Shown here: one piece after another, positions 7,882 through 40,521 of the stretch | Layout of the letters: every line of letters starts with the position of its first letter | How positions within the stretch are numbered: position 1 is the first letter of the stretch | Assembly (NCBI GenBank): GCA_009691415.1 | Contig: SICP01000013.1 | Span: 1 to 40,521, forward strand | Direction of reading: 5' to 3' | Origin: Candidatus Margulisiibacteriota bacterium | GTDB lineage: Bacteria; Margulisbacteria; Marinamargulisbacteria; SXXA01; SICP01 | DNA: 40,521 nt | Notes under the pieces: model-generated | What the model was told of the DNA's origin: nothing | Databases searched by the model: none | The model's input: only the letters and a program-made list of their open reading frames with translations | Program-made: the position numbers and the translations under genes

Positions 7882-8166
7882 CTAGAGAGACAATGAATGA
7901 ATTGTTGCTCGATGATCATGGGAGATTTGAGGCACTTGCTGCTTGAATGTGGGATTCACGGTATATGAGGACGCCATGTCGCTTGAGTTCTGGAACGATA
8001 CAGCCTTGATCCGTAAATTGCTCAAGAGTGGATACTTTTTGACTTTTTGATAAATTTTTTGAAAAATATCGATGGCAACCAACGGGTGGTCAGACAAAAT
8101 ATGATCAGAAATAGCATCTAAGTCTTGTTCTGCAGTTTTTGGCCAAAATACAGAGCGTCTAGACAT
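7882..8166 (-). pseudogene. Frameshifted RelE/ParE-superfamily toxin remnant
   Basis: ParE-like N-terminus WPKTAEQDLDAISDHILSDHPLVAIDIFQKIYQKV. The family-like continuation QGCIVPELKRHGVLIYRE is in another frame. Confidence 0.65.
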
Positions 8167-8437
8167 GTTTGGAGAGGCATTTTTTTAGCTTTTTAAAGAC
8201 GTCATCCTGAGAGATCAGGAGATGATGCTTGATGTCTTTCTCTCCTTGAGTAACCAGTTTTAACAGGGCGATAGCCTCTCGTGTTTGTTGGTAACTTTTG
8301 GGGTCTTGTAAAACTCCTTTTACTTCTCCATTTTGGGTAATAATGATAGGCCAATATGTTTCATTGATAAAGTGAAGCATGTCAGCAGTGTGAGATTTTA
8401 ACTAGCTAATAGGGTTTACATCTTCTTTTAAATTCAT
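8159..8437 (-). pseudogene. Phd/YefM-family antitoxin with an in-frame TAG
   Basis: GGAGGTGA SD then ATG at 8437: MNLKEDVNPIS*LKSHTADMLHFINETYWPIIITQNGEVKGVLQDPKSYQQTREAIALLKLVTQGEKD. TAG at 8404..8402. An ORF restarts at 8380. Confidence 0.78.
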
Positions 8438-8490: not shown

Positions 8491-10095
8491 CTACTTAACC
8501 ACATACACCTTTTCAATCTCAGCCATCATGCCCGCAGGTCCAGGTTCAGATAATCCTTTCACGCGTTTATTAATCCCTACAACCGATTCGGGATAATATA
8601 AAAAGACATAGGGTGAATCCGCAGCGATTTTCGTGAAGAGTGACGCATAGACTTCTTTTCTACTGGCATTGGACGTGGCTTCTCTACCTTCTTGAAGCAA
8701 TGTATCTACTTCAGGATTACTATAGCCAATTAAATTAAAGCCTTTAGGATATTCCTGAGTATGCCAAATCGATAGCGCGTCGGGATCAATGCCCAATTGC
8801 CAGGCCAACATGATGGCATCAAACGCTTTGGGATCTTTGGGATCATTTAGAACTTTGACGAAAGAACTCCATTCCATCACTTGAATGTTCATTTTAATGC
8901 CCACATCTGCCAAAAATTGTTGTATCATCTGCGCCACTTTTTCGCGCTCGGCATTTCCCTTATTGGTGATCATCGTAAATTCTACGGGCTTCCCTTTTTG
9001 CTCAAACCGCTTGAGCCGACCATTCCATAACAGCCCTGCCTCTTTTAATAACTGACGAGATTTCGCCGGATTAAAATCAAACTTCTTAATCTGATCGTCT
9101 GGTGGATACGCCCAAGAAATGGGAGAAGAGGGGAGGTCTGCCACTTTGCCATACCCCTTCAACACCCCTTTGACGATGGCAGGTTTATTAATCGCGTGGG
9201 CAATGGCTTCGCGTACTCGGCTATCAGAAAAGAGTGGTTTTTTTAGATTGAAACCCAAAAAATTGTACTGCAATGTTTGAAAATGGTAGATGCGGAATAG
9301 GGGATGTTTTTTGAGGTTTTCGACATCTTTGGCCGGAATATTGGTTTCGTCAATTTCACCTTTTTGCAACGCCAAAAGCGCTGTGTTTTGATCCGGAATA
9401 ATCCGAAGCAAAATCTTGGCTAACTTAGGCTTGGTTCCAAAATAATTAGGATTTCGTTTCAAAAGGACATAGTCACCAGACCTCCACTTATCAAAAATAA
9501 AAGGTCCAGTTCCCAGAGGCTGACGATTAAATCGGGTTGTATTAATATCTTGATTAAACAAAATATGTGCAGGCAAAATCCCGGTTGTCATATGCACCAA
9601 AAAGGGAGCAAACGGTTTGGGTAACACCGCCTGAACGGTATACGGATCCAAGGCTCTAAATTGAATAGGTTTTCCCTCAATCACAAAATCGCTTCTTCGT
9701 ACCGTGTTGGTTCTGGGGTCTAGAATCTTAGAGAAAGTGAAAATAACATCTGAGGCTGAAAAAGGATGCCCATCATGAAATTTCACATCTTTTCTTAAGA
9801 AAAATGTGTACACGCGACCATCGGCACTCACCGTATAACGGTGCGCCAAATCAGGGACCAATTCTAATTTTGAATTGACTTTCAAGAGGCCATTAAAGAC
9901 CATGCCGATCACTTCAGAAGACGGAACATCACGCGCCAAAATAGGATTTAAATAACTAGGCTCGCCCCCAATATTAATCACCAATTGACCATCCGGATCC
10001 CAAGCGCCAGTGCCTATTTTTTTGGATTTTCCGCATGATTGCAAACACAAACAGGCCAGAAGGAGTAAGCTGATAATCTGAAATTTCTTTGTCAT
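8491..10095 (-). CDS. Peptide ABC transporter substrate-binding lipoprotein (SBP_bac_5)
   Basis: Lipoprotein signal ending LCLQSC. INIGGEPSYLNPILARD, KFHDGHPFSASDVIFTF and RNPNYFGTKPKL are typical of OppA/DppA. Confidence 0.94.
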   Translation of the reverse strand: MTKKFQIISLLLLACLCLQSCGKSKKIGTGAWDPDGQLVINIGGEPSYLNPILARDVPSSEVIGMVFNGLLKVNSKLELVPDLAHRYTVSADGRVYTFFLRKDVKFHDGHPFSASDVIFTFSKILDPRTNTVRRSDFVIEGKPIQFRALDPYTVQAVLPKPFAPFLVHMTTGILPAHILFNQDINTTRFNRQPLGTGPFIFDKWRSGDYVLLKRNPNYFGTKPKLAKILLRIIPDQNTALLALQKGEIDETNIPAKDVENLKKHPLFRIYHFQTLQYNFLGFNLKKPLFSDSRVREAIAHAINKPAIVKGVLKGYGKVADLPSSPISWAYPPDDQIKKFDFNPAKSRQLLKEAGLLWNGRLKRFEQKGKPVEFTMITNKGNAEREKVAQMIQQFLADVGIKMNIQVMEWSSFVKVLNDPKDPKAFDAIMLAWQLGIDPDALSIWHTQEYPKGFNLIGYSNPEVDTLLQEGREATSNASRKEVYASLFTKIAADSPYVFLYYPESVVGINKRVKGLSEPGPAGMMAEIEKVYVVK

Positions 10096-10202
10096 ATTTG
10101 CCGCATCATAACATGTCTAAATAAAACTCGTAAATTTAGATTTTTACTCAATTTAGGTTTTTTTGATTTTACTATTCTAAAGTAGTGGTTTAGAATGGTC
10201 TT

Positions 10203-11390
10203 ATGATGGACGTGAAAAGAATGTATGCCAAAAATCTAGAAAATGAGTTGGATAAGCCCTTTATTTCAATATTAGTAGGACCAAGACAAGTCGGAAAATC
10301 GACACTGATGCAACACTTGCAAGTGATTTGTAAAAAACAAAAAAAGAAAACCCTTTATCTTAATTTGGAAGATCCCAGAGATCTCCAGTTTTTTAATCAT
10401 CCAGAAGAAGAAATTTTAGAAAAATTAGAAACAGCCGGAGATGTAATTTTTATTGATGAATTTCATTATTTAAAAAATGCGACCAAGTTATTTAAAATTT
10501 TATATGATTCTAAAAAGAAAATAAAAATTGTTGCATCAGGTTCTTCTGCAATTGAAATACATAAACATTTGCAAGAAAGCTTGGCAGGGCGATATCGAAA
10601 AACACAAATATTTCCATTAACATTGAAAGAGTATTTTTCTAAAAAAAATCCATTTAATCACTACCTTGTTTTTGGAGGAATGCCTGGATTGCTACATGAA
10701 GACAGTGATACAGAAAAAATGAATCTGCTCAATAATATTATTCAGGCTTACTTACTAAAAGATATTAAGTCGCTCATTAAAGAAGAAAACGTTAGGGCGT
10801 TTAATCATCTCTTGCAATTGTTGGCACAAAACCAAGGCAGTGTGGTGTCGGTTGCAAACTTGGCCAGAGAAATTGGGTTGAGTGAACCCACAATTCAAAC
10901 ACATCTAGAAATTATGTCACAAACATTTGTATGTTATCGGCTAAATAGTTATGCACGAAATTTAGCAAATGAAATTAAAAAATCTAAAAAATATTATTTA
11001 TTTGATCTAGGAATTCGACATAGTCTTCTGGCAGATTTTTCGGAAATTTCACGCCGTCAGGATATAGGTATCATTTCAGAAACCCTCGTTTTGTTAGCAA
11101 TATTACCGCAGCTAAAGCCCAACATGGATGTGAAATTTTGGAGGACACGCCAGGGTGAAGAAGTGGATTTCATCTTATTAAAAAATAGAATTCCGTACCC
11201 TGTTGAAGTAAAATACAATTTCACAGGGACAGTGATTCCCACAGGCCTCAAAATATTTTTAAGTAGATATCCCGAAGCCCCAGGAGCCCAAATAATTACT
11301 ACAACTGCACAAAACTCTCTCTGGTTTGATGGACGAGAAATAAAAATAACGGCTCTAAAAGAATGTGACCAATTAGATTATCTAGAATAA
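10203..11390 (+). CDS. AAA ATPase with C-terminal DUF4143-like domain
   Basis: Walker A GPRQVGKSTL, FIDEFHYLKNATKLFK, and C-terminal ARNLANEIKKSKKYYLFDLGIRH, WRTRQGEEVDFILL. Confidence 0.9.
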   Translation: MMDVKRMYAKNLENELDKPFISILVGPRQVGKSTLMQHLQVICKKQKKKTLYLNLEDPRDLQFFNHPEEEILEKLETAGDVIFIDEFHYLKNATKLFKILYDSKKKIKIVASGSSAIEIHKHLQESLAGRYRKTQIFPLTLKEYFSKKNPFNHYLVFGGMPGLLHEDSDTEKMNLLNNIIQAYLLKDIKSLIKEENVRAFNHLLQLLAQNQGSVVSVANLAREIGLSEPTIQTHLEIMSQTFVCYRLNSYARNLANEIKKSKKYYLFDLGIRHSLLADFSEISRRQDIGIISETLVLLAILPQLKPNMDVKFWRTRQGEEVDFILLKNRIPYPVEVKYNFTGTVIPTGLKIFLSRYPEAPGAQIITTTAQNSLWFDGREIKITALKECDQLDYLE

Positions 11391-35506: not shown

Positions 35507-35809
35507 ATGCTATTTAAAACGCCTATCGAACTCATGCAAGACATCGCACAGCGCACGCGTACCAGGCGGCTCTCTCTCAATCTTTCTCAGTTCGGACTTG
35601 CTGCACAATCAGGCGTGAGCTTGGGAAGTCTCAAACGATTCGAAAATACAGGCCAAATAGCACTCAAATCTCTCCTTAAAATGGCACTCGTACTAGACTG
35701 CCTCTCTGAATTTGAAAACCTCATTCAACCCCTCCCTAATCCTACGACCATTAAAGATCTACTCACCCAAACAAAACACAGAAAAAAGGGCACACGACAT
35801 GCCATATAA
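35507..35809 (+). CDS. hipB: HipB-like XRE antitoxin
   Basis: TRRLSLNLSQFGLAAQSGVSLGSLKRFENTGQIALKSLLKMALVL; overlaps a HipA gene. Confidence 0.85.
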   Translation: MLFKTPIELMQDIAQRTRTRRLSLNLSQFGLAAQSGVSLGSLKRFENTGQIALKSLLKMALVLDCLSEFENLIQPLPNPTTIKDLLTQTKHRKKGTRHAI

Positions 35810-37016
35810 TCCCATAAGTGCACTGATAGTATCTTTGGATTTTGGTGAAGAAAAAATAGAAGTGGGGCATCTGATACAGAAAAATCGGCGCATTTTCTTT
35901 AATTACACCCCTGATTTCTTGAAGCATCAACTCCAAATTTCTCCATTTAAATTACCGCTAGCCATGGCCCTAACTACCTGTGAAGTAAGCGGATTTGAAG
36001 GTCTTCATGGGGTTTTTAACGACAGTCTGCCAGATGGGTGGGGGAAGCTTTTGTTAGATCGATATATGCGAACACAAGGCGTCATGCCCCAGCAACTAAC
36101 TCCCCTAGACCGGCTGTCTTTTGTGGGGAATAACGGAATGGGAGCGTTATGTTACACCCCACAATACGACTTAAAACACCATGCCTCAGAACCCGTAGAT
36201 TTACCAAAATTAGAGTGCGAAACACATGCCCTCCTAGACGGTGATACCGATACATTTTTTGAAGAATTACTGAGACTTAATGGATCCTCTCATGGTGCAA
36301 GGCCCAAAATTCTTGCCGAAGTTTCTCATGATAAAACTAAAATTTTATCCAAAAGGAAAAAGACAGAAGAAACAGATTCCTGGCTTATTAAATTTAAGTC
36401 TGTCCAAGACCCAGATGATAATGGCGCAATCGAATACGCTTATAGCCTCATGGCAAAAGAAGCGGGGCTGCATATGCCAGAAACCTATCTTTTTAACAAT
36501 CGTTATTTCGGTGTAAAACGCTTCGACTGCGACGTGAAGAAACGGCATCATATGCACACCCTTTCAGGGCTTCTTCATGCAGACTACAGAATTCCCAATT
36601 TAGACTATAAAGATGCATTAAAAGCAACACAGCTACTCACAAAATCGGCAAAAGACATTCAGTCCCATTTCAAATTAGCCGTATTCAACGTGCTAGCCCA
36701 CAACCGGGATGATCACGGTAAAAATACAGCCTATTTGATGGATCAATCAGGCGTGTGGCATCTCGCGCCAGCGTATGATCTTACATTTTCATACGGCCCA
36801 GCTGGAGAGCAAAGTATGACTATCATGGGTGAAGGAAAAAATCCCGCAGAAACCCACCTCATCAAACTTGCACAGGCTTATGATATTCAAAATGCAAAAG
36901 AAATCATTGAAGTCGTTCAGGCGACTATCAACAAATGGCCCTCAATCGCAAAAAATGCAGGTGTGACCAAGACCTCTACAACCCTCATTAAAAATTCCCT
37001 GAAATTTTTCAAATAA
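35799..37016 (+). CDS. hipA: HipA-family serine/threonine kinase toxin
   Basis: ATG at 35799 (MPYNPISALIVSLDFGE). GSSHGARPKILA, LIKFKSVQDPDDNGAIEYAYSLMAKEAGL, HNRDDHGKNTAYLMDQSGVWHLAPAYDLTFS. Confidence 0.93.
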   Translation: MPYNPISALIVSLDFGEEKIEVGHLIQKNRRIFFNYTPDFLKHQLQISPFKLPLAMALTTCEVSGFEGLHGVFNDSLPDGWGKLLLDRYMRTQGVMPQQLTPLDRLSFVGNNGMGALCYTPQYDLKHHASEPVDLPKLECETHALLDGDTDTFFEELLRLNGSSHGARPKILAEVSHDKTKILSKRKKTEETDSWLIKFKSVQDPDDNGAIEYAYSLMAKEAGLHMPETYLFNNRYFGVKRFDCDVKKRHHMHTLSGLLHADYRIPNLDYKDALKATQLLTKSAKDIQSHFKLAVFNVLAHNRDDHGKNTAYLMDQSGVWHLAPAYDLTFSYGPAGEQSMTIMGEGKNPAETHLIKLAQAYDIQNAKEIIEVVQATINKWPSIAKNAGVTKTSTTLIKNSLKFFK

Positions 37017-37064: not shown

Positions 37065-39971
37065 ATGTCTTCAATACCTTCAAATACAAACACAATACCT
37101 AGCCTAACTTTTCGTATAGCGGGGAGGAGAATCTTAGTTGCAACAACAACAGATCGATATGGTAAAACTACTGTGGCCGAAAATGGTAAGCCGGATAGTG
37201 GTTGGGTAAAGAAAACAACTGAAAGTGCTCAGAGCAGATTAAATATAGAGGACGTTACCACGGATGCATCTTCTACAGATCAAAGTACTCAGCGCACTTT
37301 TAATATAGGGGGCGTTACCAAGAATGAATCTTCTACAGATACAGAAAGGCGTACTTGGGTTCAATCTTTAGGAGATAAGGCAAGGAATTTGTTTACAACA
37401 CCTAATTTTAAAGAACAAGCTGGCCAAGCAACTCAAACAAGACGCGCTCAAGAAAGCGCCCATCCCGGAATTACACATGAAATACAAGGGGTAAAAGCAG
37501 GTTCTGCACTTGCTTTGCAGTTATTAGGGGCAACCCCAGTATCTGTAGTATCAAAATTAATGCAAGCTCTGGGTATGGATGAAACTACTTTTGGTCAGCT
37601 TGTTGCTCATTCTGTAGCTGTAGGGGTAACTTCTTTGGCAGTGACAACACCAACAGGATTATTTATCGCTGCTCTCTCGACCTTAGGCGGAGAAGCACTA
37701 TGCGCTGGAGTCCAATGTATCACCTCAAAAGATAGTCAAGCACAAATACTATTAGATACGGTAGCCAAAGAATCGCTTGGGATCGCCATGCAGGTCGCCG
37801 TTGGTAATAATAGGGATAGCGCAGAAAAGCCTATGCCGACTATTTCCGAAGGCGCAGAAAATTATCAACAGCTAGGAAACACCGTTGTTTCCAAAGCACA
37901 AGATTTTTTTGCCTGTTATGGATTAGATACCACAGTAGTTGCCGTTAGTACTCTTGTCGGAGGACCTACAACAGGGGCCTTGGTGTTAGGGACAGTATTG
38001 GTTGTTAAGAATATAAACGTGGTGAATGCCGCCTCGATAGGGGAGCGCAGAGATGTAGGTAATCAAAGACAGAACTCAACCTTTACAGGACCTAGCGGTT
38101 TTGGAACAAAGGTGGTGCCCTTTGAAAGTAATAGTGGCAGCCAAATAATGGTCCTTGCTAATTCTGGAAATGGCACTGTTTTCATCCTTCCTACAGAAGG
38201 AGGGAGTCAACTTATTACAAACGCTTCACCTACAGGGGGAGCAAGAATATCGGGTGCGGATATAAAAATAGTATCTGCAGCGATAGTCGACTGGAATATG
38301 GATGGTAAGCCGGATGTTGCTGTTGCTTGTGTTGATGGGATGCGTATTGTTCCTGGGCCCGTGTATGGGGAAGTAAATTTAGCTACAGTCATCCCTTTAC
38401 CTAATACCGCCGGGCAAGGGGCGATTATCACACCGGTAGTCGTAGCAAATGAACCGAATTGTGTGGCGTTGAGTAGTCCGGATGGGCGAGTTTTTATCCA
38501 CTCTCCATCAGGAGTAAAATTCGAAATTCCTCCAGGGAAGTCTTCCTTAATAACCGGGATTTCTCAGGCTGGACATTACATAGGTATAGGCAATAGAGTT
38601 AGTGGTAACTTTAGCGGCGAGTTTAGTATTTATAGTATAGAAGGTGGCATCTCCACTCTTGTAGCTAGTATCACAGGTACGGGACCTGTCAGACTGGGGG
38701 CTTCTGTAAGTGCCCATAATGATATATTTGGTGTAGGCTCGACTACTTTTGGTACAGGCGGTGGGTTCATTCTATTTGATACTACAGGAGTTGAGGTGGA
38801 TAGGATAAACGGGCCGATCGCGGGGGGGCAGTTTGGTGGAAGTTCGGCAAACGGACCTAATGGATTTTTTGTTGCAGATATAAGAAATGGAGCTGTTTAT
38901 GAGCTCCCTCTAGATGCTAATGGAAAGTTTCCTACTTCATTAGGTGCGCCAAGTTCCAATGGAACAAAAGCAAGTTATGGTGCATCAATAGCATCGGGAG
39001 AAAATGCTTTCTTTATAGGCGATCCTCTAAGTGGAAAAGTTCATAAAGTCCCATATCCTTCTGGTTCCAATCCTACTTCTGACTCTTCAAGTAGTAGCAA
39101 GCAAGCGGTAATCTTAGCTTCCATTTTTGGGGGAGGGGCCAGTTTATTGGGGATTGCAAAGCTAGTGCACTATTTTCGGAATCGCCCTGCGAATCAGGCT
39201 GCTGTTGAGTATGAAGAACGCATGAATCGTGTCCCAATGGAAAACGTTCAAGACTTAATGAATCACTTTGCGAATCAGAATAATGTTGAGTATGAAGAAC
39301 GCATGAATCGTGTCCCAATGGAAAACGTTTCAGACTTAAATAATCCGCTTGCGAATCATGCTACAGTGAAGGAAACTTCCTTTGGTCAAAGAGAGGATGG
39401 GTATGCAAATCCCAGAGCATTGACGCTTGCGTCTGCCTCTAATCTTGATAACACTTTGTATGAAGCGACAGGACCGAGTGATTTCTATGCTGCTTTTACA
39501 GGGATTAGTAAAAATCCCGAAACAGGGACTGAATCGCCTGCAGATACTCTTCGACGGGGCAACCAATCCTCAAATTTAGTGGTCGCAGCTTCCGAAACAG
39601 TGAAGGAAACTTCCTTTGGTCAAAGAGAGGATGGGTATGCAAATCCCAGAGCATTGACGCTTGCGTCTGCCTCTAATCTTGATAACACTTTGTATGAAGC
39701 GACAGGACCGAATGGTTTCTATGCTACGGGGAATTTCGAAACACCGACTGAGCAGTTTGGAGGTACTCTTCGACGGGGCAACCAATCCACGTATGGAACG
39801 ACAGGACCGAATGGTTTCTATGCTGTTGTTAGAGGGGGGGATGAGTATGAAAGGCCCGAAAAATTGACGAGTGAGTATGCCGATATTCTTAACCGGCGAG
39901 GAGAATGTCCGGATGGGTATACTTTGCTTAATTTACCAAACGAAGTGTCCCCATATGCAAATCCAGCATAG
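37065..39971 (+). CDS. Large FG-GAP/propeller-like membrane-anchored protein with tyrosine-rich repeat tail
   Basis: SD gggag; Ca-site-like IVDWNMDGKPDVAVA; hydrophobic segments incl. AVILASIFGGGASLLGIAKLVHYF; C-terminal repeats VEYEERMNRVPMENV and YANPR...TLYEATGPxxFYA. Confidence 0.8.
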   Translation: MSSIPSNTNTIPSLTFRIAGRRILVATTTDRYGKTTVAENGKPDSGWVKKTTESAQSRLNIEDVTTDASSTDQSTQRTFNIGGVTKNESSTDTERRTWVQSLGDKARNLFTTPNFKEQAGQATQTRRAQESAHPGITHEIQGVKAGSALALQLLGATPVSVVSKLMQALGMDETTFGQLVAHSVAVGVTSLAVTTPTGLFIAALSTLGGEALCAGVQCITSKDSQAQILLDTVAKESLGIAMQVAVGNNRDSAEKPMPTISEGAENYQQLGNTVVSKAQDFFACYGLDTTVVAVSTLVGGPTTGALVLGTVLVVKNINVVNAASIGERRDVGNQRQNSTFTGPSGFGTKVVPFESNSGSQIMVLANSGNGTVFILPTEGGSQLITNASPTGGARISGADIKIVSAAIVDWNMDGKPDVAVACVDGMRIVPGPVYGEVNLATVIPLPNTAGQGAIITPVVVANEPNCVALSSPDGRVFIHSPSGVKFEIPPGKSSLITGISQAGHYIGIGNRVSGNFSGEFSIYSIEGGISTLVASITGTGPVRLGASVSAHNDIFGVGSTTFGTGGGFILFDTTGVEVDRINGPIAGGQFGGSSANGPNGFFVADIRNGAVYELPLDANGKFPTSLGAPSSNGTKASYGASIASGENAFFIGDPLSGKVHKVPYPSGSNPTSDSSSSSKQAVILASIFGGGASLLGIAKLVHYFRNRPANQAAVEYEERMNRVPMENVQDLMNHFANQNNVEYEERMNRVPMENVSDLNNPLANHATVKETSFGQREDGYANPRALTLASASNLDNTLYEATGPSDFYAAFTGISKNPETGTESPADTLRRGNQSSNLVVAASETVKETSFGQREDGYANPRALTLASASNLDNTLYEATGPNGFYATGNFETPTEQFGGTLRRGNQSTYGTTGPNGFYAVVRGGDEYERPEKLTSEYADILNRRGECPDGYTLLNLPNEVSPYANPA
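37241..37340 (+). repeat. Two 40-bp imperfect direct repeats, 60-bp period
   Basis: aatatagRggRcgttaccaMgRatgMatcttctacagat at 37241..37280 and 37301..37340 (LNIEDVTTDASSTD / FNIGGVTKNESSTD). Confidence 0.85.
39203..39329 (+). repeat. 46-bp perfect direct repeat, 81-bp period
   Basis: tgttgagtatgaagaacgcatgaatcgtgtcccaatggaaaacgtt at 39203 and 39284. Confidence 0.92.
39363..39711 (+). repeat. 115-bp perfect direct repeat, 234-bp (78-codon) period
   Basis: acagtgaaggaaacttcctttggtcaaagagagg...gaagcgacaggaccga at 39363..39477 and 39597..39711. Confidence 0.93.
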
Positions 39972-40188
39972 TTTGCTTCCTCTTGATAGTAAAACAATCC
40001 TCAAATCCAGTGGCCACGGATAAAGCTTCCGAAATAGGGACGTATTATGAAACGCTAACACAGCAATAGTATCTAATCTTTAACAGGGACTGGTAAAGAT
40101 TCCAAAACACTGACTGAGCAGTCTGCAGATACTCTTCGACGGCGCGAATAATCCGAAAATCCAGTATTGTATTAGTCATGAACCTAAG

Positions 40189-40209
40189 GTATAAATTATA
40201 AATTTATAC
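40189..40209. promoter_or_regulatory. Palindrome GTATAAAT-tataa-ATTTATAC
   Basis: Perfect 8-bp arms, 27 bp upstream of the 40237 start. Confidence 0.5.
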
Positions 40210-40236
40210 AACGCATAAGTATAAAGGAGATACCCT

Positions 40237-40338
40237 ATGAAATTAAAATGGCAAGTACCAATTATTAAAGTTATTAGCATTGAAGATACACAACTCGGAG
40301 GCATTCATCAGTCAGATACTGGGTCGCCAGCCAGCTAA
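40237..40338 (+). CDS. 33-aa peptide, candidate RiPP (lasso-like) precursor
   Basis: SD aaggaga, ATG, MKLKWQVPIIKVISIEDTQLGGIHQSDTGSPAS, TAA. Confidence 0.5.
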   Translation: MKLKWQVPIIKVISIEDTQLGGIHQSDTGSPAS

Positions 40339-40352
40339 GAGAAGAAATAGGA

Positions 40353-40384
40353 AAATAGGTGCCTGCGAGGGAAATAGGTACCTG
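40353..40384. repeat. AAATAGGTRCCTG tandem motif, possibly transposon/REP-associated
   Basis: aaataggtgcctg at 40353..40365 and aaataggtacctg at 40372..40384. Confidence 0.4.
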
Positions 40385-40521
40385 GACACTAAGCGACAGA
40401 AGGGGACAGGTTAAAAAACTGTCAGAATTGGAATTTATTGGATGAAAGGATTAGTGGGATTGAAAAACGAATGCTTGCTATTCATCCTATTAATCCATAA
40501 ACCCCACTAATCGCAATTCAA

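What the first reader, a model, noticed from the sequence alone, without database searches (positions are those of the whole stretch)
40189..40338. Possible lasso-peptide (RiPP) precursor at the right edge
Sequence: a 33-aa ORF, MKLKWQVPIIKVISIEDTQLGGIHQSDTGSPAS, has a strong SD (aaggaga, 6-nt spacer) and sits 27 bp after the palindrome GTATAAAT-tataa-ATTTATAC. Established knowledge: many lasso leaders carry a YxxP motif about 12 residues before the core and Thr at -2; the core N-terminal amine joins Asp/Glu at position 7-9. Here W5xxP8 resembles that motif, T18 would be -2, and the core LGGIHQSDTGSPAS would have Leu1 and Asp8. Leu1/Asp8 occurs in citrulassin-type peptides, and the spacing matches paeninodin-like leaders as I remember them. 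Inference: a lasso-like precursor. Caveats: the tail TGSPAS lacks a bulky plug, Trp replaces Tyr, and no biosynthetic genes are visible because the window ends. LGG could instead be a double-glycine leader site.
Basis: partly seen in the sequence, partly recalled or inferred. Interest (0 to 1): 0.72.

Follow-up and report, generated by a model that had tools for sequence, protein, structure and literature searches.

The report
Orphan lasso-type peptide precursor gene
The 33-residue reading frame at the window's edge looks like a real gene for a small modified peptide of the lasso type, because a sister genome keeps its leader half and its key residues while the product half has changed almost completely; but no enzyme that would make the lasso was found in either genome.

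Summary
In detail: ORF 40237-40338, Shine-Dalgarno and palindrome are all there. The ORF is real. The only same-genus genome held (G001) has an ortholog in the same place, MKLKWQAPVIKVISLEDTNANGNGGADITGQS. The leader is kept (15 of the first 18 residues; pN 0.13, pS 0.54), while the core is almost wholly changed, although flanking housekeeping proteins are 88-98% identical.

Set with Thr at -2, both peptides have W-15, P-12 and I-10, the register published for a paeninodin-type lasso leader, plus Asp at core position 8 and a C-terminal Ser, the residue that paeninodin kinases phosphorylate. This supports a precursor bound by an RRE (leader-binding protein), most likely lasso-like.

No maturation genes lie nearby. 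The true right neighbour (contig C7) is proA-proB-obgE. No B1, B2, cyclase or kinase was found in this 84%-complete genome, nor in G001. The nearest relatives hold pieces: G002 a lasso-type B1, a kinase and a cyclase fragment; G003 B1, a B2-nucleotidyltransferase fusion and an ABC exporter.

Best reading: an orphan paeninodin-like precursor in a genus-specific accessory block, its enzymes either missing from the assembly or lost. Lasso formation is inferred, not shown.

The parts
40237..40338 (+). Small ORF, 33 aa plus stop: putative RRE-dependent (lasso-type) precursor peptide
   Evidence: Read directly; ortholog G001:C9:7955-8053, 63% identity over residues 1-27, E 7.7e-7; HMM hits of 87 and 83 bits only in G000 and G001 among 27 genomes of the class
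40237..40293 (+). Leader, residues 1-19 (W5/P8/I10/T18 = -15/-12/-10/-2)
   Evidence: 15 of the first 18 residues identical in G001, pN 0.13 vs pS 0.54; register equals PbaA W-15xxP-12xL-10 (PMC13381572)
40294..40335 (+). Predicted core LGGIHQSDTGSPAS (Leu1, acceptor Asp8, C-terminal Ser14)
   Evidence: Inferred from Thr(-2); G001 core ANGNGGADITGQS shares Gly3, Asp8 and a C-terminal Ser and little else
40225..40231 (+). Shine-Dalgarno aaggaga, 6-nt spacer
   Evidence: Read directly
40189..40209 (.). AT-rich perfect palindrome upstream; not conserved in G001
40368..40417 (.). Dispersed genomic repeat downstream of the ORF (copies on C32, beside a transposase-like ORF, and on C1; also after the G001 ortholog)
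37065..39971 (+). Large FG-GAP-like surface-protein gene directly upstream; G001 also has one upstream of its ortholog, only about 30% identical
   Evidence: (weak Pfam hit)
40467..40521 (.). 55-bp overlap with the start of contig C7; joins to proA-proB-obgE
   Evidence: 100% identity; same gene order in G001

Best explanation
The ORF encodes a genuine RiPP precursor whose leader is built for a PqqD-like RRE (B1) of the paeninodin-like lasso type. Inferred working: B1 would bind W-15xxP-12xI-10; a B2 protease would cut after residue 19, with Thr at -2; a cyclase would join the amine of residue 20 to Asp27 (core Asp8); an HprK-like kinase could phosphorylate the C-terminal Ser. Shown: the sequence, its leader conservation and core divergence, the exact register, Asp8 and terminal Ser in both orthologs, and lasso-type B1, kinase, B2 and cyclase pieces in the nearest relatives. 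Not shown: that this organism owns the enzymes, or that the product is a lasso. The gene sits as an orphan in a genus-specific accessory block between a JAB-protein gene and proA. Its enzymes are either in the unassembled part of the genome or have been lost.
For: Ortholog in the only same-genus genome held, same synteny. Leader under purifying selection (pN 0.13, pS 0.54) with a near-unrecognisable core, while flanking housekeeping proteins are 88-98% identical. Register identical to the solved PbaA leader; Trp is typical of paeninodin-like leaders (PMC13381572). Thr(-2) is the usual lasso signature and Gly1-Asp8 a known ring (PMC10368454). Both peptides end in Ser, the PadeK site (PMC9266682). 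G002 (same family) has a PqqD-like protein whose best NCBIfam hit is lasso_PqqD (7.6e-16, below that model's curated cut-off) and whose best PDB matches include lasso B1 proteins TbiB1 and TfuB1; directly after it a kinase frame carrying the lasso-kinase motif H-G-G-G-K-S-D-D; and elsewhere a cyclase fragment with best hit NF033535 lasso cyclase, 1.1e-11. G003 (same order) has B1, a B2-NTP_transf_5 fusion and an ABC exporter in a row.
Against: No B1 (PF05402, E<=10) in G000 or G001, no credible B2 (NF033537) and no cyclase in either; in G000 also no PF13471 (E<=10); no G002-type kinase in either. If each genome were an independent 84% sample, both missing a present cluster has a chance of about 0.03, although binning losses are not independent. 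The tails after Asp8 (TGSPAS, ITGQS) are short and lack an obvious bulky plug. No NCBIfam or Pfam model hits the peptide. Only two sequences are known.
Confidence: 0.58

Rival explanations
1. Relic: the family once had a lasso cluster that has fallen apart; g1 keeps the precursor and G002 keeps B1, kinase and a broken cyclase. The peptide is no longer matured.
For: Cyclase fragment and lone B1-kinase pair in G002; no B2 in G002. No enzymes in two g1 genomes.
Against: Leader codons still show purifying selection and the ORF and SD are intact in both g1 genomes.
Confidence: 0.3
2. An RRE-dependent RiPP of another class: a linear phosphorylated peptide (LPP type) or a radical-SAM product, since KWxxP leaders are not specific to lassos.
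For: G074 in the same phylum has a KWQTPEL precursor beside PqqD-, B2- and HprK-like genes and several radical-SAM genes. G002 has B1 plus kinase without an intact cyclase. LPPs share these enzymes without a cyclase (PMC13381572).
Against: LPP leaders use Tyr, and LPP phosphorylation is at core Ser3. Thr(-2) plus conserved Asp8 plus terminal Ser fit lasso better. The G074 core is Cys-rich and unlike this one.
Confidence: 0.2
3. A conserved small protein or regulatory leader peptide with no post-translational modification.
For: No enzymes found; only two members.
Against: Conserved N-terminal half with the exact RRE register and a hypervariable Gly-rich C-terminal half is the classic RiPP pattern. 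It is followed by a repeat and a convergent gene rather than a gene to regulate.
Confidence: 0.12
4. Double-glycine (class II bacteriocin type) leader cut after LGG.
For: LGG at residues 20-22 in G000.
Against: G001 reads NANGNGG with no GG at that place; remaining cores would be 11 aa or fewer; W/P/T conservation would be unexplained.
Confidence: 0.03
5. A chance ORF.
For: Short; about 0.2 such patterns expected per genome of this size.
Against: Orthologous, syntenic and codon-conserved in G001.
Confidence: 0.02

Closest known systems
Paeninodin-like phosphorylated lasso peptides (paeninodin PadeA, PbaA, pseudomycoidin)
   Same: W-15xxP-12x[L/I]-10, Thr at -2, acidic residue at ring position, C-terminal Ser; relatives G002 and G003 hold B1, kinase, B2 and NTP-transferase homologs.
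   Different: No C-A-K-B1-B2-D cluster around the gene and no B1, B2, cyclase or kinase found in the genome; very short tail; not Bacillota-like in context (a DsbD-like gene in the window and BamA/LpxD-like genes in G002 suggest a Gram-negative).
Bsf-type phosphorylated lasso peptides (Bradymonas)
   Same: Asp8 ring acceptor; cluster includes kinase and nucleotidyltransferase.
   Different: Bsf has Ile(-2), YxxPxL at -17 to -12, and phosphorylation at core Ser3 (PMC10368454).
Linear polyphosphorylated peptides (LPPs)
   Same: RRE, HprK-like kinase and nucleotidyltransferase without cyclase, as the G002 remnants might suggest.
   Different: YxxP leader, archaeal-type signal peptidase, core Ser3 (PMC13381572).
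Prochlorosins (lanthipeptides)
   Same: From general knowledge: precursors with a kept leader and hypervariable core, often away from the enzyme gene.
   Different: Different leader (Nif11 type) and chemistry; the ProcM enzyme is present in those genomes.
SynChlorMet-like radical-SAM cluster of G074
   Same: KWQxP leader start beside PqqD, B2 and HprK-like genes.
   Different: 75-aa (95-aa if an upstream start is used) Cys-rich precursor with several radical-SAM genes.

Membership tests
Lasso peptide (precursor level) | RRE-binding [Y/W]xxPx[L/V/I/F/A] motif in the leader | tested here: met
   W5xxP8xI10 in G000 and G001 (motif per PMC13381572)
Lasso peptide (precursor level) | Thr at the penultimate leader position with Asp/Glu at core 7-9 | tested here: met
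   T18 = -2 and D27 = core 8 in both orthologs; cleavage site itself inferred
Lasso peptide (precursor level) | Tail long and bulky enough to stay threaded | tested here: inconclusive
   Tails TGSPAS and ITGQS are short without a clear plug
Lasso peptide (cluster level) | B1, B2 and C genes next to the precursor | tested here: not met
   Right neighbour C7 is proA-proB-obgE; left is FG-GAP, HipA, HTH, JAB; same in G001
Lasso peptide (cluster level) | B1, B2 and C anywhere in the genome | tested here: inconclusive
   None found in G000 or G001, but both assemblies are about 84% complete
Paeninodin-like subfamily | WxxP (not YxxP) at -15 to -12 | tested here: met
   Exact register match to PbaA
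Paeninodin-like subfamily | C-terminal Ser and a lasso-tailoring kinase | tested here: inconclusive
   Ser is terminal in both peptides; kinase with the H-G-G-G-K-S-D-D motif only in G002, no G002-type kinase in G000 or G001
Paeninodin-like subfamily | Match to a curated family model of the peptide (NCBIfam) | tested here: not met
   No NCBIfam hit up to E 10; very short queries may be filtered
Double-glycine bacteriocin | Conserved GG cleavage site | tested here: not met
   GG not at the same place in G001
Lasso peptide (product level) | Threaded macrolactam, core mass minus water | not testable with these tools
   Needs MS or NMR

The most novel reading that the evidence does not exclude
A genus keeps a stand-alone, hypervariable-core lasso-type precursor inside a fast-evolving surface-protein block, matured in trans by enzymes encoded elsewhere (or by a partner cell), so that the peptide diversifies together with the FG-GAP surface protein next to it.
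Probability: 0.15. Interest if true: 0.62.

Novelty: new variant of a known kind. Interest (0 to 1): 0.42.

Why it matters
Lasso mining usually starts from the enzymes, so precursors that stand alone are invisible to it. If this gene is functional it shows that paeninodin-type leaders exist outside clusters in a small-genome lineage, with cores that turn over faster than the rest of the genome. If it is a relic, the three nearest lineages show how a RiPP system falls apart: precursor in one, B1 and kinase in another, B1-B2-exporter in a third.

Tried and rejected
- Named relatives: the search for related loci on genome contigs with the two-row alignment gave 254 pattern stretches but none confirmed at E 1e-3. 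The organism is therefore unnamed.
- Plasmids by tblastn: no match. PDB with the peptide: none. Pfam and NCBIfam with the peptide: none.
- Asn-synthase hits in G000/G001 read as GuaA, NadE, MnmA, a sugar amidotransferase and QueC (my reading of the sequences) and were rejected as cyclase. The weak B2 hit in G001:C3 is a 74-aa ORF antisense to an ABC transporter, rejected. The AsnB-like gene at G003:C40 lies in a polysaccharide/haem-gene region with no precursor beside it.
- A G002 ORF with the same register (MPLTWQDPLLKIGSLGNT..., L038:7872-7750) lies out of frame inside a 489-aa gene and was taken as chance.
- NTP_transf_5 in G000 (C16) was followed as a possible tailoring gene; it sits in a polysaccharide locus with no B1 or B2, so it is not counted.
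- Weak A1 hits in other genomes of the class (E 0.03-0.9), several of them inside long ORFs, were treated as noise.

Full report
Observation. The window is a whole contig (C24) of a 1.31-Mb, 34-contig genome rated 84% complete. A search of the same motif set in 6 Mb of Markov DNA trained on this sequence gave one match and none with a terminal Ser, so the pattern is unusual for 40 kb but not decisive alone.

Context. The last 55 bases of the window equal the first 55 of contig C7, the look of an assembly-graph overlap. C7 continues with proA, proB, obgE, rpmA and rplU on the other strand (gene names here and below are my reading of the translations unless a family hit is cited). The same order is seen in the same-genus genome G001: rsmD, coaD, rph, JAB, FG-GAP protein, small ORF, repeat, a proA 3' fragment, a second FG-GAP gene, proA, proB, obgE. 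In G002 (same family) proA and the JAB gene lie 3 bp apart tail to tail, so the block with HTH-HipA, FG-GAP protein and small ORF is most simply an insertion in genus g1. No lasso gene is in it.

The gene is real. G001 encodes MKLKWQAPVIKVISLEDTNANGNGGADITGQS at the same place. Over codons 1-18 there are 11 nucleotide differences but 3 amino-acid changes (pN 0.13, pS 0.54; Ser14 is AGC in one and TCT in the other). Over the next 13 codons, 11 residues differ. Flanking housekeeping proteins are 88-98% identical and the FG-GAP neighbour only about 30%. Kept leader and changed core is the RiPP pattern. Among 27 genomes of the class only these two carry it.

Which RiPP. With Thr18 at -2, the conserved residues fall at W-15, P-12 and I-10. 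The solved paeninodin-type leader PbaA has W-15, P-12 and L-10, and Trp is near-invariant in that subfamily (PMC13381572). Thr at -2 is the usual lasso feature, and a Gly1-Asp8 ring is known (PMC10368454). Both peptides have Asp at core 8 and end in Ser, the residue phosphorylated in paeninodin (PMC9266682). These are matches of register, not proof of product.

Enzymes. In G000 there is no PF13471 or PF05402 match up to E 10, and in G001 no PF05402 up to E 10 and no NF033537 hit beyond one rejected antisense ORF. The Asn-synthase hits read as GuaA, NadE, MnmA, a sugar amidotransferase and QueC. The G002 kinase finds nothing in G000 or G001. The nearest relatives do hold pieces. G002 has a 94-aa protein whose best family is the lasso PqqD chaperone and whose best PDB matches include lasso B1 proteins. 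A kinase frame with the published motif H-G-G-G-K-S-D-D follows it directly; general HprK models hit it only weakly. On another contig G002 has an 84-aa fragment whose best family is the lasso cyclase. G003 has B1, a B2 fused to NTP_transf_5, and an ABC exporter beside polysaccharide genes. B2 is rare in the phylum: 2 of 75 genomes, and the second (G074) belongs to a radical-SAM cluster whose precursor also begins KKWQTPEL. That shows the leader motif alone does not prove a lasso.

Verdict. A genuine RRE-type precursor gene, most likely paeninodin-like, standing alone. Whether it is still matured depends on enzymes not seen in two genomes of about 84% completeness. Confidence: real precursor about 0.8; lasso-type about 0.6; functional in this organism about 0.4.

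Noticed in passing
window 37065-39971; G001 C9:5230-7875 and 8592-10940 (L030): Large FG-GAP-like proteins with a membrane segment and a C-terminal tail rich in Tyr motifs (for example YEVP in G001 and the tandem repeat DGYANPRALTLASASNLDNTLYEATGP in the window). About 30% identical between species whose housekeeping proteins are 88-98% identical; possible integrin-like, host-facing surface proteins (inference).
   Followed up: partly
window 35507-37016: HTH-HipA pair upstream of the FG-GAP gene; in G001 the HTH remains but HipA is replaced after about 37 residues by a second FG-GAP protein.
   Followed up: partly
L030 (G001 C9) about 8089-8267 and 11145-11323: Duplicated proA 3' end at 95.5% identity, a footprint of tandem duplication of the FG-GAP block.
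   Followed up: yes
window 39971-40170: Decayed copies of the FG-GAP gene's 3' repeat lie between its stop codon and the small ORF.
   Followed up: partly
window 40368-40417; L010 331-372 and 1055-1193: Dispersed repeat TAGGTACCTGGACACTAAGCGACAGAAGGGGACAGGTTAA beside a transposase-like ORF that resembles REP-associated tyrosine transposases (family not tested by a search).
   Followed up: partly
L066 5186-11367 (G074 C85): SynChlorMet-like cluster: Cys-rich precursor, HprK-like kinase, B2, PqqD and several radical-SAM genes.
   Followed up: partly
L039 1-3136 (G003 C133): B1, B2 fused to NTP_transf_5, and an ABC exporter next to polysaccharide genes; no precursor found in the 9 kb read.
   Followed up: partly
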